From an uncultured Paenibacillaceae bacterium (GTDB lineage Bacteria > Bacillota > Bacilli > Paenibacillales > K13), in contig CAJXLT010000011.1 in assembly GCA_913056365.1 (NCBI GenBank), positions 1-64,000 of the forward strand: a stretch of 64,000 nt of DNA. The letters run 5' to 3'. The notes beneath the pieces were generated by a model. That model ran no database searches. It saw only the letters and a list, made by a program, of their open reading frames with translations, and was not told where the DNA came from. Positions 36,876 to 41,189 of the stretch are shown piece after piece (position 1 is the stretch's first letter; every line of letters begins with the position of its first letter). The position numbers and the translations under genes were made by a program.

Positions 36876-37355
36876 TTAATGGTTCAGCATGTCGTGCAAC
36901 ACAGTATTCAATATGTCTATACTTTTCTCGAATACCTCGATTTCCTGTTCACTTAGTTGTGTCCGCAACTGCTCGTAATAGGCGAGATGCATCGCCTCAT
37001 GTGCCACATAAGCCTCCTTTCCAAGTTCGGTAAGTGATACAATTGAGCTTCGTGAATCTTGGGGGTGGGGGGAGCGAGTTACTAACGCCTTCGCTTGTAA
37101 TTTGTCGATCAGCTGCGTGATCGCTCCCTTCGTCACACCGAGCCGAGAAGCAAGCTCACTCATGAGCATGGTACCTTCCAGCCCGATTGCGTCAATCGTA
37201 TGGATGTCGCTAGGTGTTAATTTACCAGCTTGCCCGAATGTGTGAGGCTGGCGCTCCAACCGCCGAAGCAGCATAATCAATCGACCTAAGCTATTGCTGC
37301 CACTATTCACTTTTTGGTTCGCTTCAGGTTGAGGATGTTCTGATTTCTTGTCCAT
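36876..37355 (-). CDS. MarR family transcriptional regulator
   Basis: 159 residues. Winged-helix core TPSDIHTIDAIGLEGTMLMS, LASRLGVTKGAITQLIDKLQ and the wing HPQDSRSSIVSLTELG with the D-x-R pair. A charged, unstructured N-terminus of about 20 residues precedes it. It sits at the head of the MFS operon with matching operators on both sides, so autorepression and drug-induced release are likely. Confidence 0.9.
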   Translation of the reverse strand: MDKKSEHPQPEANQKVNSGSNSLGRLIMLLRRLERQPHTFGQAGKLTPSDIHTIDAIGLEGTMLMSELASRLGVTKGAITQLIDKLQAKALVTRSPHPQDSRSSIVSLTELGKEAYVAHEAMHLAYYEQLRTQLSEQEIEVFEKSIDILNTVLHDMLNH

Positions 37356-37474: not shown

Positions 37475-37542
37475 TACGGATATCCCAGTCCGTTAGGTGT
37501 AGGGGCCGAGTCGCTAGTGTTCTTACGGTTATCCGAGTCTGG
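37475..37542. repeat. Family B palindromic repeat, two-unit copy
   Basis: Units TACGGATATCCCAGTCCGTT (37475) and TTACGGTTATCCGAGTCTGG (37523) with the linker GTGTAGGGGCCGAGTCGCTA between them. The same two units and linker recur in the same orientation at 38530-38600. The second unit holds the stop codon and last residues of the minus-strand gene at 37529. Confidence 0.75.
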
Positions 37543-38191
37543 CGCCGTTGCTCAGCTGATACAGGCGATATCGTTGCTTGTTGTCGACGACGATTAGTAG
37601 CTTCAACTCAACAAGCTTGTCTGCTATACGCCGTGCCTGTCTGTCCGATCGCTGTAGGTGTGCCGCCAGTTCGCTTGATGAAAATGACCGCATGATGCCG
37701 CGTGCAAATCGCAAGGTTTCATTTTCACTCCAACTGAGCGAATATTCTAATGGGCTTGCAACGAACTTGCCAACGAAGGATAGTGCCAGCTGTTTGCATG
37801 CCTCTGGCTCATCGGTGATCGACAGATAGGCAATCGGCAAAAACATCCAGTCGTCCAACGTCAGATATGCTTGCTTCATGCACAGGTCCTTGAATCTCCA
37901 CGCTTCGATATCTCTCGCATGTGATTTGTATTCATGAATCTCTATACAGCCTTTCGCACCACTAGGCATATAAGCGAGATCCAGATATCGGTAGCGGTTG
38001 CTATAATCTCTTACTTCCCATTCCGGATACAGATGCATCAAATTACCTACAACAGGATACCATATCGTTCTTAAAAATTCCCTTGTACCATGGCCTAACC
38101 CTTTTTGCAGAAGTTCGCGTCTTCTCGGATTTTTTTCTTCGATTATTTGTTCAGTTAGCCATTCGTCCATGATTGTATCAAAGCCGTTCAT
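37529..38191 (-). CDS. Putative PD-(D/E)XK-like/winged-helix protein
   Basis: 220 residues from ATG 38191 (RBS ATAGGTGGTG). The middle part reads YRYLDLAYMPSGAKGCIEIH followed by EYKSHARD, which fits a restriction-fold D...(D/E)-x-K pattern. The C-terminal 60 residues (FSSSELAAHLQRSDRQARRI, then ADKLVELKLLIVVDNKQRYRLY) look like a winged HTH. I do not recognise a named family; function could be a regulator with a dead nuclease fold or a nuclease. The last five residues and stop come from a repeat, so the original C-terminus may have been different. Confidence 0.65.
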   Translation of the reverse strand: MNGFDTIMDEWLTEQIIEEKNPRRRELLQKGLGHGTREFLRTIWYPVVGNLMHLYPEWEVRDYSNRYRYLDLAYMPSGAKGCIEIHEYKSHARDIEAWRFKDLCMKQAYLTLDDWMFLPIAYLSITDEPEACKQLALSFVGKFVASPLEYSLSWSENETLRFARGIMRSFSSSELAAHLQRSDRQARRIADKLVELKLLIVVDNKQRYRLYQLSNGARLG

Positions 38192-38217
38192 TCTAACACC
38201 ACCTATCGAATATAGAC

Positions 38218-38285
38218 ACAAAAAAATGCCGCTCTGAGTAGGAACCGTTCACTTCCCGGTTCTCTGTATCAAAGCGACATGTGCT
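38218..38285 (-). promoter_or_regulatory. Structured leader or attenuator upstream of the nuclease-like gene
   Basis: On the minus strand, a 12-bp outer stem (38269-38280 with 38226-38237, two G-U pairs) encloses an inner 6-bp stem GAACCG/CGGTTC and is followed by seven T bases at 38220-38226, only 28 bp before the ATG at 38191. This is the layout of an intrinsic terminator. It could be an attenuator or the end of an upstream small RNA. Confidence 0.6.
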
Positions 38286-38367
38286 TCATGTCGTGTATAT
38301 ACTTCATTTTACAAGAAGGTGGAGGATAGGGCAAGCAGTAAGTAACCTTGTATGCAAAATGTAGATC

Positions 38368-38600
38368 TAGCGGACACGGATGTCCGTTAGAGAGCCAAAC
38401 TTCGATATTTCGAATTGTAACGGACGCGCATGACCGTTAGCGTTGGATTTTCCTGCTACTGTGCTACTTTTCAGACTTTAATGGACATCAGCGTCCGTTA
38501 CAGAAGGAAATCGCCCCAATCCGTGTTCTTACGGACATCCGTGTCCGTTAGGTGTAGGGACCGAGTCGCTAGTGTTCTTACGGTCATCCGTGTCTGGTAG
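38368..38600. repeat. Family B palindromic repeat, five-unit array
   Basis: Five hairpin units at about 38371, 38419, 38479, 38529 and 38578, spaced 49-60 bp, for example CGGACACGGATGTCCG, AACGGACGCGCATGACCGTT and ACGGACATCCGTGTCCGT. The core is ACGGAC-N4-6-GTCCGT. The 500-bp gap between the nuclease-like gene and the GH44 gene holds this array and no gene I can support. Confidence 0.75.
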
Positions 38601-38804: not shown

Positions 38805-41189
38805 ATGCTGTCTATGTTCATGCAAAAGCGGAAAGGGAGGAATTGGTTAAGTGCGCTCACTATAGGTGCGATGCTTGGGGGAATCTTGGTCCCGTCAGCA
38901 GCAGTTTCTGCGGCTGCCCCCATACCCGTGTCCATCCAAGTGAATACGAATGAGGATCGTAAGGAAATCAGTCCATATATTTATGGTACGAACGCATCTG
39001 CAAGTTTGGCAGGGAGTGAGGGAGTTGCAGCACGACGATTGGGCGGGAACCGAATGACCGGATACAATTGGGAGAACAATGCATCCAATGCAGGGTCGGA
39101 TTGGCTTCATCAAAGCGATGACTTCTTATGCTCGGAGTTTGCGCTCACCGTTTCAGAATGCGAGACACCTGCCAAGGTCCAAACAACATTCCATGAACAG
39201 TCGCTGGCACAAGATGCGTACACTGTACTGACTCTCCCAATGGCCGGGTATGTGGCGCGAGACAAGGCCGGACCGGTTGAAGAGACTGAGGCCGCTCCAT
39301 CTGCAAGGTGGGATCAATCTGAATTTGCGAAGCAAGCTCCTTTTCAATTGCAGCCGGATTTGAATGACGGTACGGTGTATAGTGATGAATTTGTGAACTA
39401 TATGGTCCATCATTACGGGGATGCTAGTACATCCACCGGCGTTGACGGATATTCCCTGGATAATGAACCTGCGCTGTGGTCGCACACGCACGCGAGAATT
39501 CATCCTGATCCCGTAGGCGCAGTGGAACTGGTGGATCGCTCAATAGCCTTATCCAAGGCTGTCAAAGCAGTCGATCCTCATGCGGATATATTCGGCGGGG
39601 TTCTCTATGGTTTCAATGCGTACCTATCCTTGCAGGATGCCCCGGATTGGGCGAATGTCCAAGGGAACTACGATTGGTATGTGGATTATTATTTGGATCG
39701 AATGAAGCAAGAGTCACAGAGTGAAGGACGACGGCTTCTTGACGTGATGGATGTTCACTGGTATCCAGAGGCGCAAGGCGGAGGTCAACGTATTACCTTC
39801 AATGGCGTAGGGAATGAACAGACCCAAATGGCCAGATTGCAGGCGCCAAGAACGCTGTGGGACCCGACGTATGTAGAAGATAGCTGGATTGCCCAATATT
39901 TCAGCGATTACTTGCCTATCTTGCCGCGTCTGCAGCAATCGATCGATCAGTATTATCCGGGAACGAAGCTAGCAATCACGGAATTCAGCTATGGCGGGGA
40001 AGGGGATATTTCCGGGGGATTGGCTATGGTCGATGCTCTTGGGATATTTGGAAAATATGGTGTGTACATGGCCAACTTCTGGAGGTTGGAATCAGATACA
40101 AGCTATGTGAGCGCAGCCTATCAGTTGTACCGTAATTATGACGGCAACAACGCGACCTTCGGAGAGACCAGTGTGCGTTCTACCACATCTGACATTGTGA
40201 ACAGCTCGGTGCATGCTGCCGTGACTGAGGAATCCGATCAGCTCCATATGATCGTCATGAACAAAAGTATGGATACGCCATTGCAAGCTGATATTTCAAT
40301 TGCCGGAGATACGTTGTACGAATCTGGCTCTGTATATGGCTTCGATTCAACCAGCTCCAATCTGTTCGAAGCTGCGTCGATTGCTACTATTACCAATAAT
40401 CAATTTACGTATACTGTGCCGCCATTGACCGCTTATCACATCGTACTGGATGCAGATACCGATGAACCAATTGAAGTTCCGGCAGCTCCCACCAATTTAA
40501 GTGCAGAAGCCGGTGACAGCACAGTAACACTGAATTGGAATGCCTCGGTCGGCGGAACCAGCTATACGGTGAAACGTTCCGTTGATGGCGGGAATACGTA
40601 TGAGCTGCTGGCTGCAGACATTGCAGGAACATCCTATACGGATACCAGTGTAACCAACGGTACGACCTATCATTACGTGGTAAGCGCAGTCAATCAAGCT
40701 GGGGCAAGCCCGGACTCGATTGAAGCTAGCGCTACACCGACAGGATCATTCGGACCTAGTGGGGAGCTAGTGTTACAATATCGAGAAGCGGATGGAGACG
40801 CATCGAACAACCAAATCAAACCGCATTTCAATATTAAAAATGAAGGCAGCGAAACAATCGACTTGGAGGATGTGAAGCTCCGCTATTACTTCACCAAAGA
40901 AGGCGGCGCTTCCATGAATTCCTGGATTGATTGGGCGCAGATCGGCGGTCAACATATCGACAGGACATTCACGAATTCGTACGTTGAATTGACATTCAAA
41001 CCTGGAGCTGGTTCACTGGATGCAGGTGAGCAATCTGGGCAGATTCAGCTCCGTATGTCGAAGGTAGACTGGTCGAACTTCGATGAGACGAATGATTACT
41101 CGTATGATGCTGCCAAAACCTCTTTTGAGGATTGGGATCAAGTGACGCTCTACCTCAACGACAACCTTGTCTGGGGAATCGAACCGTAA
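38805..41189 (+). CDS. Secreted glycoside hydrolase family 44 with FnIII and CBM3
   Basis: 794 residues. A signal peptide with a basic start and AVSA-A cleavage near residue 37 sends it outside. The GH44 domain (about 40-545) has the acid/base Glu in SLDNEPALWS (about 221) and the nucleophile Glu in LAITEFSYGG (about 392). Then a fibronectin III domain (about 555-650) and a CBM3 cellulose-binding module (about 655-794, starting ELVLQYREADGDASNNQIKP). GH44 enzymes cut beta-1,4-glucans, xyloglucan or mannan. The RBS AAGGAGGT lies close to ATG 38805; ATG 38814 is possible. Terminator at 41203. Confidence 0.92.
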   Translation: MLSMFMQKRKGRNWLSALTIGAMLGGILVPSAAVSAAAPIPVSIQVNTNEDRKEISPYIYGTNASASLAGSEGVAARRLGGNRMTGYNWENNASNAGSDWLHQSDDFLCSEFALTVSECETPAKVQTTFHEQSLAQDAYTVLTLPMAGYVARDKAGPVEETEAAPSARWDQSEFAKQAPFQLQPDLNDGTVYSDEFVNYMVHHYGDASTSTGVDGYSLDNEPALWSHTHARIHPDPVGAVELVDRSIALSKAVKAVDPHADIFGGVLYGFNAYLSLQDAPDWANVQGNYDWYVDYYLDRMKQESQSEGRRLLDVMDVHWYPEAQGGGQRITFNGVGNEQTQMARLQAPRTLWDPTYVEDSWIAQYFSDYLPILPRLQQSIDQYYPGTKLAITEFSYGGEGDISGGLAMVDALGIFGKYGVYMANFWRLESDTSYVSAAYQLYRNYDGNNATFGETSVRSTTSDIVNSSVHAAVTEESDQLHMIVMNKSMDTPLQADISIAGDTLYESGSVYGFDSTSSNLFEAASIATITNNQFTYTVPPLTAYHIVLDADTDEPIEVPAAPTNLSAEAGDSTVTLNWNASVGGTSYTVKRSVDGGNTYELLAADIAGTSYTDTSVTNGTTYHYVVSAVNQAGASPDSIEASATPTGSFGPSGELVLQYREADGDASNNQIKPHFNIKNEGSETIDLEDVKLRYYFTKEGGASMNSWIDWAQIGGQHIDRTFTNSYVELTFKPGAGSLDAGEQSGQIQLRMSKVDWSNFDETNDYSYDAAKTSFEDWDQVTLYLNDNLVWGIEP

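What the first reader, a model, noticed from the sequence alone, without database searches (positions are those of the whole stretch)
37475..38600. Second ~50-bp-spaced palindrome array (family B) flanking a gene
Units with core ACGGAC...GTCCGT lie at 38371, 38419, 38479, 38529 and 38578, and a two-unit copy with identical linker sequence sits at 37475-37542 in the same orientation. The two copies flank the gene at 37529-38191. That is direct-repeat flanking, as seen with insertion by recombination or with duplication.
Basis: seen in the sequence. Interest (0 to 1): 0.55.

Follow-up and report, generated by a model that had tools for sequence, protein, structure and literature searches.

The report
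Nuclease gene with private four-site DNA arrays
In spore-forming bacteria a small nuclease-like protein gene sits beside its own set of four evenly spaced DNA signals, and the same signals are scattered between genes around the chromosome, which looks like an undescribed kind of repeat-spreading or repeat-reading system.

Summary
The palindrome array is real, but it is one instance of a wider system. In the window's genome 29 of 32 loci examined carry the same 22-bp dyad units; 24 keep four units at 50/61/50 ±1 bp. The flanked gene (37529-38191, minus strand) belongs to a multicopy family with a predicted Vsr/I-Bth0305I-like nuclease domain and a MarR-like winged helix. A detector blind to unit sequence found four-unit arrays of this geometry within 1 kb of 26 of 40 homologs; leaving out one repeat-dense locus, 0.46 per kb near against 0.02 per kb further away. 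Five of six homologs tested outside the order have one. Unit sequence varies between genes and tracks protein similarity. A second scattered family matches the closest paralog. The sites behave as DNA rather than RNA. The window gene and both arrays are conserved beside the same GH44 gene in the only held congener, so recent insertion is not supported; the 68-bp copy looks like a local duplication. Best reading: a nuclease plus cognate dispersed arrays, analogous to RAYT/REP but built from unrelated parts. Binding, cutting and mobilisation are inferred.

The parts
37529..38191 (-). Gene for a 220-aa protein: Vsr/EDxHD-type nuclease-fold domain (about 1-145) plus MarR-like winged helix (about 150-220); alternative TTG start at 38221
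   Evidence: no Pfam hit at E 0.001 and no NCBIfam hit for this member
38368..38389 (+). Array unit U1 (TAGCGGACACGGATGTCCGTTA)
38418..38439 (+). Array unit U2
38479..38500 (-). Array unit U3, inverted relative to U2
38529..38550 (-). Array unit U4, inverted relative to U1
38578..38599 (-). Extra fifth unit, decayed on its 3' side
37475..37542 (+). Two-unit 68-bp direct copy of U4-U5 (38530-38597, 91%); overlaps the gene's 3' end
38805..41189 (+). GH44/CBM3 gene, neighbour that anchors synteny with G001 (context only)
36876..37355 (-). MarR-family regulator, downstream neighbour; no tblastn match in the 20-kb G001 stretch (context only)

Best explanation
The gene and the arrays are a cognate pair. 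The protein (a Vsr/I-Bth0305I-fold endonuclease domain joined to a winged helix) reads a 22-bp near-palindromic site of its own. Four sites arranged forward, forward, reverse, reverse at about 50/61/50 bp form one composite nucleoprotein target next to its gene. The same composite target has been copied to many intergenic places, and is kept or re-copied there because the resident protein acts on it. In logic this is a REP/RAYT-like system (a resident nuclease and its dispersed cognate repeats) built from unrelated parts. SHOWN: geometry, gene-array association, unit type varying with the gene, dispersal, presence/absence between congeners, predicted fold. INFERRED: that the protein binds the units, that it cuts DNA, and that cutting or bridging drives copying (homing or gene-conversion type). 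One dispersed family spreads at least partly as cargo of a roughly 400-bp MITE-like element.
For: Arrays within 1 kb of 26 of 40 homologs: 62 near hits (0.775 per kb) against 17 far (0.025 per kb), with 3 hits in a shuffled copy of all 778 kb; one locus, L173, gives 26 of the 62, and without it the rates are 0.462 and 0.020 per kb, 25 of 39 loci. The same geometry near 28 of 36 homologs in 3-kb loci that partly overlap that set and near 5 of 6 fetched homologs outside the order. Units differ between genes, and unit similarity tracks protein similarity (Mantel r 0.68, p 0.0005). Two dispersed families in one genome each match a different resident gene. In the orthologous upstream array of G001 units are 69 of 88 identical and linkers 55 of 104 aligned columns; in the second family units average 73% and linkers 46% identity (shuffled-linker baseline 37%). 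Nuclease domain: Z 11.8 over 97 of 97 residues of I-Bth0305I and Z 9.5 to Vsr; D71, E84 and H91 invariant in 36 of 36. G·T and A·C mismatches about equally common overall, so a DNA rather than RNA constraint. 28 of 29 array loci clear of predicted ORFs, the other with a 10-bp overlap. Five of six testable array sites carry no array in G001.
Against: No binding or cleavage was tested. The window gene sits at a conserved position, so it has not moved lately. 14 of 40 homologs show no array within 1 kb at the threshold, nor do 7 of the 14 in-order loci. Two of the 26 positives are doubtful: L173 is a dense field of GC-rich palindromes and L178 looks like GC-rich low complexity. Dispersal of the main family is explained at least partly by MITE-like transposition, which needs no help from this protein. 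N- and C-domain similarity correlate equally with the units (r 0.67 and 0.68), so shared descent alone could give that correlation, and at least three loci entered it twice. Units were found partly by unit patterns, which inflates their conservation. Foldseek E-values for the fold are weak (I-Bth0305I 0.18; best hit an R2 retrotransposon endonuclease at 0.0018).
Confidence: 0.5

Rival explanations
1. Regulatory or architectural system: the protein is a sequence-specific repressor or nucleoid factor (nuclease activity lost or incidental) and the four-site arrays are composite operators or looping sites between genes.
For: Winged helix resembling MarR-type repressors; intergenic arrays; units conserved over linkers; strict spacing that fits protein-protein contacts on DNA.
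Against: Near the gene the array is mostly downstream, not at the promoter: the nearest one is 1-250 bp downstream at 24 of 26 loci; D71, E84 and H91 are invariant in 36 of 36, as expected of a working nuclease; arrays turn over between congeners.
Confidence: 0.25
2. The dispersed arrays are passive passengers: ordinary MITE and other transposition plus decay, with the gene merely flanked by old copies.
For: Main-family element about 400 bp with ends GTTACTACTTA...TAAGTAGTAAC and an 8-bp target duplication in L042 (8 of 8) and L044 (7 of 8).
Against: In the second family similarity stops near the array edges (longest alignments 190-200 bp; 60-bp flank identity 0.31); arrays of many unit types sit beside homologs across the class, which passive MITE spread does not predict.
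Confidence: 0.15
3. Structured RNA: the array is transcribed as a folded RNA that works with the nuclease, as in omega-RNA systems.
For: Nuclease gene with a palindromic element at its 3' end; nested pairing U1-U4 and U2-U3 beats self-hairpins, strongly in the P. oralis/P. macerans group; in that group alone G·T exceeds A·C, 20 to 10 of 528 cells.
Against: Overall G·T equals A·C (110 against 119 of 2,200 cells for the nested pairs, and the small P. lignilyticus group leans the other way, 6 to 13; 59 against 66 on the sense strand of 25 gene-adjacent arrays); sequence-specific covariation weak in the main group (z at most 2.6); no Rfam match in the window at gathering thresholds.
Confidence: 0.05
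4. One reading: recent insertion of the gene by recombination between direct repeats at this site.
For: 68-bp direct repeats flank the gene.
Against: Gene and an array on each side are present at the orthologous site of G001.
Confidence: 0.05

Closest known systems
REP / RAYT (TnpA_REP) systems
   Same: A resident nuclease gene flanked by palindromic repeats, several repeat classes per genome each tied to its own gene, many dispersed extragenic copies (passages of PMC3686654)
   Different: The protein is not a Y1 HUH transposase but has a predicted Vsr/EDxHD fold plus winged helix; units lack the 5' GT(A/G)G tag; the repeat is a four-site dsDNA array at 50/61/50 bp
EDxHD homing endonuclease I-Bth0305I
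   Same: Catalytic-domain fold (Z 11.8 over 97 of 97 residues); a small nuclease domain tethered to DNA-binding parts, dimerising on a target of nearly 60 bp (review PMC3943268, passages)
   Different: Free-standing chromosomal gene with a winged helix and multi-site arrays; no Rfam intron match in the window; homing not shown
Vsr mismatch endonuclease and DUF559 proteins
   Same: Fold (Z 9.5 to Vsr 1cw0, Z 10.2 to NGO0050 3hrl); 3 of 36 members hit Pfam DUF559 at E up to 0.01
   Different: Added winged helix and association with arrays
MITEs of bacteria
   Same: The main dispersed family sits in a roughly 400-bp element with inverted ends, and an 8-bp duplication in two copies
   Different: The array is a separable module: it is found beside homologs, and in the second family similarity is confined to the array

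Membership tests
REP/RAYT | Y1 HUH tyrosine transposase | tested here: not met
   No transposase family among hits of the window protein or among the 20 Pfam families hit by any of 36 members at E up to 0.01; predicted fold is Vsr/EDxHD-like
REP/RAYT | Repeat with a 5' GT(A/G)G tetranucleotide next to a palindrome | tested here: not met
   GT(A/G)G occurs in 2 of 297 ten-base windows at the inner unit edges of 50 arrays
REP/RAYT | Repeats flank the gene and cognate copies are dispersed | tested here: met
   but 20 of 26 homolog loci have the array on the 3' side only, and dispersal was tested for two unit types
EDxHD homing endonucleases | Vsr-like catalytic fold | tested here: met
   Z 11.8, rmsd 2.6, 97 of 97 residues of 3r3p; predicted model, pLDDT 92; Foldseek E for 3r3p only 0.18
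EDxHD homing endonucleases | The E, D, H, D active-site residues in the right places | tested here: inconclusive
   D71, E84, H91 invariant but not superposed residue by residue
EDxHD homing endonucleases | Cuts a gene-less allele and copies its gene there | not testable with these tools
   needs biochemistry or crosses
MITE (main dispersed family only) | Terminal inverted repeats | tested here: met
   Left end GTTACTACTTA with 0-1 mismatch in 11 of 26 copies; right end with 0-2 mismatches in 7 of 26
MITE (main dispersed family only) | Target-site duplication | tested here: inconclusive
   Of 5 copies with both ends scored: L042 8/8, L044 7/8, L035 6/8 inside a T-run, L036 2/8, L047 2/8 with poor ends
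MITE (second dispersed family) | Repeat bounded by inverted ends outside the array | tested here: inconclusive
   Similarity ends near the array edges and 60-bp flanks are dissimilar; ends were not scored separately
Structured ncRNA | Compensatory changes and G·U excess on one strand | tested here: not met
   (one group of 12 arrays does show G·T 20 to A·C 10); Rfam none

The most novel reading that the evidence does not exclude
A second, independently evolved answer to REP/RAYT: a family of Vsr/EDxHD-fold nucleases that each recognise a private 22-bp site and, through a fixed four-site forward-forward-reverse-reverse complex, copy or convert whole arrays into intergenic sites across the chromosomes of Bacilli, with several orthogonal nuclease-array pairs living in one genome.
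Probability: 0.35. Interest if true: 0.85.

Novelty: categorically new. Interest (0 to 1): 0.72.

Why it matters
If the protein reads and acts on the arrays, this is a resident nuclease-repeat system of the Bacilli that shares neither protein family nor repeat design with REP/RAYT, CRISPR or known homing elements. It would suggest that selfish or domesticated dispersed-repeat systems arose more than once. It offers orthogonal protein-site pairs for asking how winged helices change specificity, and it makes testable why bacteria keep multi-copy extragenic palindromes.

Tried and rejected
Rejected: (1) Independent hairpins or RNA: nested U1-U4/U2-U3 complementarity exceeds self-pairing, but overall G·T equals A·C and covariation is weak; the P. 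oralis/P. macerans group alone has G·T 20 to A·C 10. (2) Cloverleaf pairing: weaker than nested pairing in that group. (3) Operator only at the gene's promoter: arrays are mostly 3' of the gene. (4) Phage or plasmid cargo: no match in 50,697 phage records and one 26% match, in a 2.7-Mb Paenibacillus plasmid, among 72,556 plasmid records. (5) Known families: scattered weak winged-helix hits and DUF559 for 3 of 36, single-member hits in NCBIfam, and in PADLOC seven members with SoFic at best E 0.00017 plus single-member hits; I take these as the shared helix-turn-helix. (6) A role tied to convergent genes in the own genome: 18 tandem, 7 divergent, 3 convergent, 1 undecided. The full-length PDB searches listed mainly winged-helix proteins, one domain filling the list, so the N-domain was modelled alone. 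A base-by-base comparison of the second shared array (L060/L209) gave no usable alignment.

Literature: ten searches listed no title or abstract start that describes such arrays or such a gene-array pair; some lists were capped and most listed papers were not opened. The library holds only open-licence PMC papers, so absence in print is not shown. Passages of PMC3943268, PMC11879112 and PMC3686654 were seen by term search; the I-Bth0305I structure paper is not held.

Full report
What is there. The window holds five 22-bp near-palindromes at 38368-38599 (spacing 50/61/50/49) and a 68-bp, two-unit direct copy at 37475-37542, 91% identical. Six matches to the core with up to 3 mismatches stand against 0.01 expected. 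Between them lies a minus-strand gene of 220 codons whose stop falls inside the downstream copy.

It is a genome-wide family. A consensus 22-mer with up to 3 mismatches matches 42 times forward and 44 reverse in the 4.65-Mb genome, against 3 and 1 for the reversed-pattern control. Of 32 loci looked at, 29 had units, 25 had four consecutive units, and 24 kept 50±1/61±1/50±1 (the three without units came from a looser pattern). The units run forward, forward, reverse, reverse: U1 is inverted against U4 and U2 against U3. In the P. oralis/P. macerans group this nested complementarity is 83%, against 45% for self-pairing (12 arrays, one of them the G000 array L060, which the script placed there). 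In the main group the difference is small, 73% against 67%. Of the 29 arrays, 28 touch no predicted ORF of 100 aa or more, and the other overlaps one by 10 bp. The three-unit pattern is also in G001, in P. oralis, P. macerans and P. lignilyticus, and at exact match in 4 of 392 order genomes, G000 and G001 included.

The gene is the key. It has six paralogs in its own genome. The nearest (62% identity) is flanked on both sides by arrays of the same geometry but of another unit sequence. I therefore wrote a detector that ignores unit sequence and asks only for U1/U4 and U2/U3 inverted complementarity at 49-52/59-66/49-52 (1 hit at score 28 in 192 kb of shuffled window). In up to 20 kb around each of 40 homologs from the order, arrays at score 29 or more lie within 1 kb of the gene at 26 of 40 loci: 62 hits, 0.775 per kb, against 17 hits, 0.025 per kb, elsewhere, and 3 hits in a shuffled copy of all 778 kb. 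One locus, L173, gives 26 of the 62 near hits; without it the rates are 0.462 and 0.020 per kb, with 25 of 39 loci positive. L178 also looks like GC-rich low complexity; without L173, L178 and the tandem locus L180 the figures are 0.392 and 0.020 per kb, 23 of 37 loci. The nearest array is 1-250 bp downstream of the gene at 24 of 26 loci; 20 loci have arrays downstream only, 5 on both sides, 1 upstream only. In the 3-kb loci, 28 of 36 have a hit; that set overlaps the 40. Homologs occur in 85 of 119 order genomes and in 34 of 299 class genomes at E 1e-8, 16 of them outside the order. Of six loci fetched from outside the order, five have an array at score 29 or more; of the 14 in-order loci of that call, seven do.

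Cognate pairs. Unit sequence differs between genes, and pairwise unit similarity correlates with protein similarity (42 entries, Mantel r 0.68 with the C-domain and 0.67 with the N-domain, p 0.0005). At least three loci entered twice under two ids, and shared descent alone could give such a correlation. In the own genome a search with the unit of the nearest paralog (TAACGGAA...CTTA) gave 55 forward and 56 reverse matches against 27 and 23 for the control at up to 2 mismatches. Of 20 regions I picked from these, 19 have the full forward-forward-reverse-reverse chain at 50-51/61-62/50-51, and the paralog's own locus L116 has it too. In this family the longest alignments between copies are 190-200 bp, about the array itself; units average 73% and linkers 46% identity (baseline 37%), and flanks are unrelated (0.31). 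These arrays were found by unit pattern, so the unit figure is inflated.

DNA, not RNA. If an RNA fold were kept, G·U-type mismatches would exceed A·C on one strand. Overall they do not: 110 against 119 of 2,200 nested cells in 50 arrays and 59 against 66 on the sense strand of 25 gene-adjacent arrays. By group the counts are 82 to 96 (main), 20 to 10 (P. oralis/P. macerans group) and 6 to 13 (P. lignilyticus group), so the second group alone leans towards RNA. Covariation within the main group is weak for every unit pair (z at most 2.6). Rfam has no match in the window at gathering thresholds.

The protein. AlphaFold2 models (full length pLDDT 88, N-domain 92) give a C-terminal winged helix close to MarR-type proteins and an N-terminal domain closest to I-Bth0305I (Z 11.8, 97 of 97 residues, rmsd 2.6), NGO0050 (10.2) and Vsr (9.5). 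Foldseek is weaker: its best N-domain hit is an R2 retrotransposon protein at E 0.0018, and I-Bth0305I has E 0.18 with a target TM-score of 0.75. DUF559 is hit by 3 of 36 members. D71, E84 and H91 are invariant in 36 of 36 aligned members, consistent with a working metal-dependent nuclease; activity is inferred.

Local history. In the congener G001 the same gene stands beside the same GH44 gene with four-unit arrays up- and downstream. In the orthologous upstream arrays, units are 69 of 88 identical and linkers 55 of 104 aligned columns.

Turnover. Comparing 29 own-genome array loci with 19 array loci of G001 (a partial list), two (L060, L061) share flanks on both sides; the window locus, compared separately, is a third shared place. 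Flank searches covered 8 loci fully; six had both sides found in G001, and five of these had no array hit between them (G001 against own distance between the matched flanks 146/648, 141/560, 71/325, 182/271, 226/467). The sixth (540/507) holds array-like hits of unrelated sequence, best score 31. Loss in G001 is not excluded. The main family sits in a roughly 400-bp element with ends GTTACTACTTA...TAAGTAGTAAC (left end with 0-1 mismatch in 11 of 26, right with 0-2 in 7 of 26) and 8-bp duplications in L042 (8/8) and L044 (7/8), against L035 6/8 in a T-run, L036 2/8 and L047 2/8. So this family moved at least partly as a MITE. The second family shows no similarity outside the array.

Reading. 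The association, the variation of unit type with the gene and the fixed four-site geometry argue that the protein acts on the array. Whether it cuts, copies or only binds is open. In logic it resembles REP/RAYT, of which it is not a member by protein or by repeat. I put 0.5 on the nuclease-array pair acting in a repeat-maintaining or homing-like way, and 0.25 on a regulator reading.

Noticed in passing
L042, L044, L035 (own genome, contig C1): MITE-like element of about 400 bp with ends GTTACTACTTA...TAAGTAGTAAC, and 8-bp target duplications in L042 and L044, carries the main array family; its transposase was not looked for.
   Followed up: partly
L096-L098, L102-L104, L107, L109 (Paenibacillus oralis and P. 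macerans contigs): Judged by eye, these array elements begin just after a T-run that follows a terminator-like hairpin, and several end with the hairpin ggacgccgtcaggcgttttt or a close variant.
   Followed up: no
L088:1447-2115 (G001:C37): Array expanded in tandem with a period of about 162 bp; L044 in the own genome shows the reverse, a deletion between U1 and U4.
   Followed up: partly
L193 and L197 (G376:C101:282270-284703): Nuclease homolog apparently split in two pieces about 1.8 kb apart, with an array whose units resemble the dispersed P. macerans arrays.
   Followed up: no
L149 (G002:C1), downstream of the gene: Three arrays at 228, 576 and 904 bp after the gene with 49-50/63/49-50 spacing.
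   Followed up: no
window 37529-37542: The downstream repeat copy supplies the last codons and the stop codon of the nuclease gene, so its C-terminus is repeat-encoded.
   Followed up: partly
L173 (G029:C1), around the gene: 30 detector hits at score 29 or more, 26 of them within 1 kb: a dense field of GC-rich short palindromes on both sides of the homolog.
   Followed up: partly
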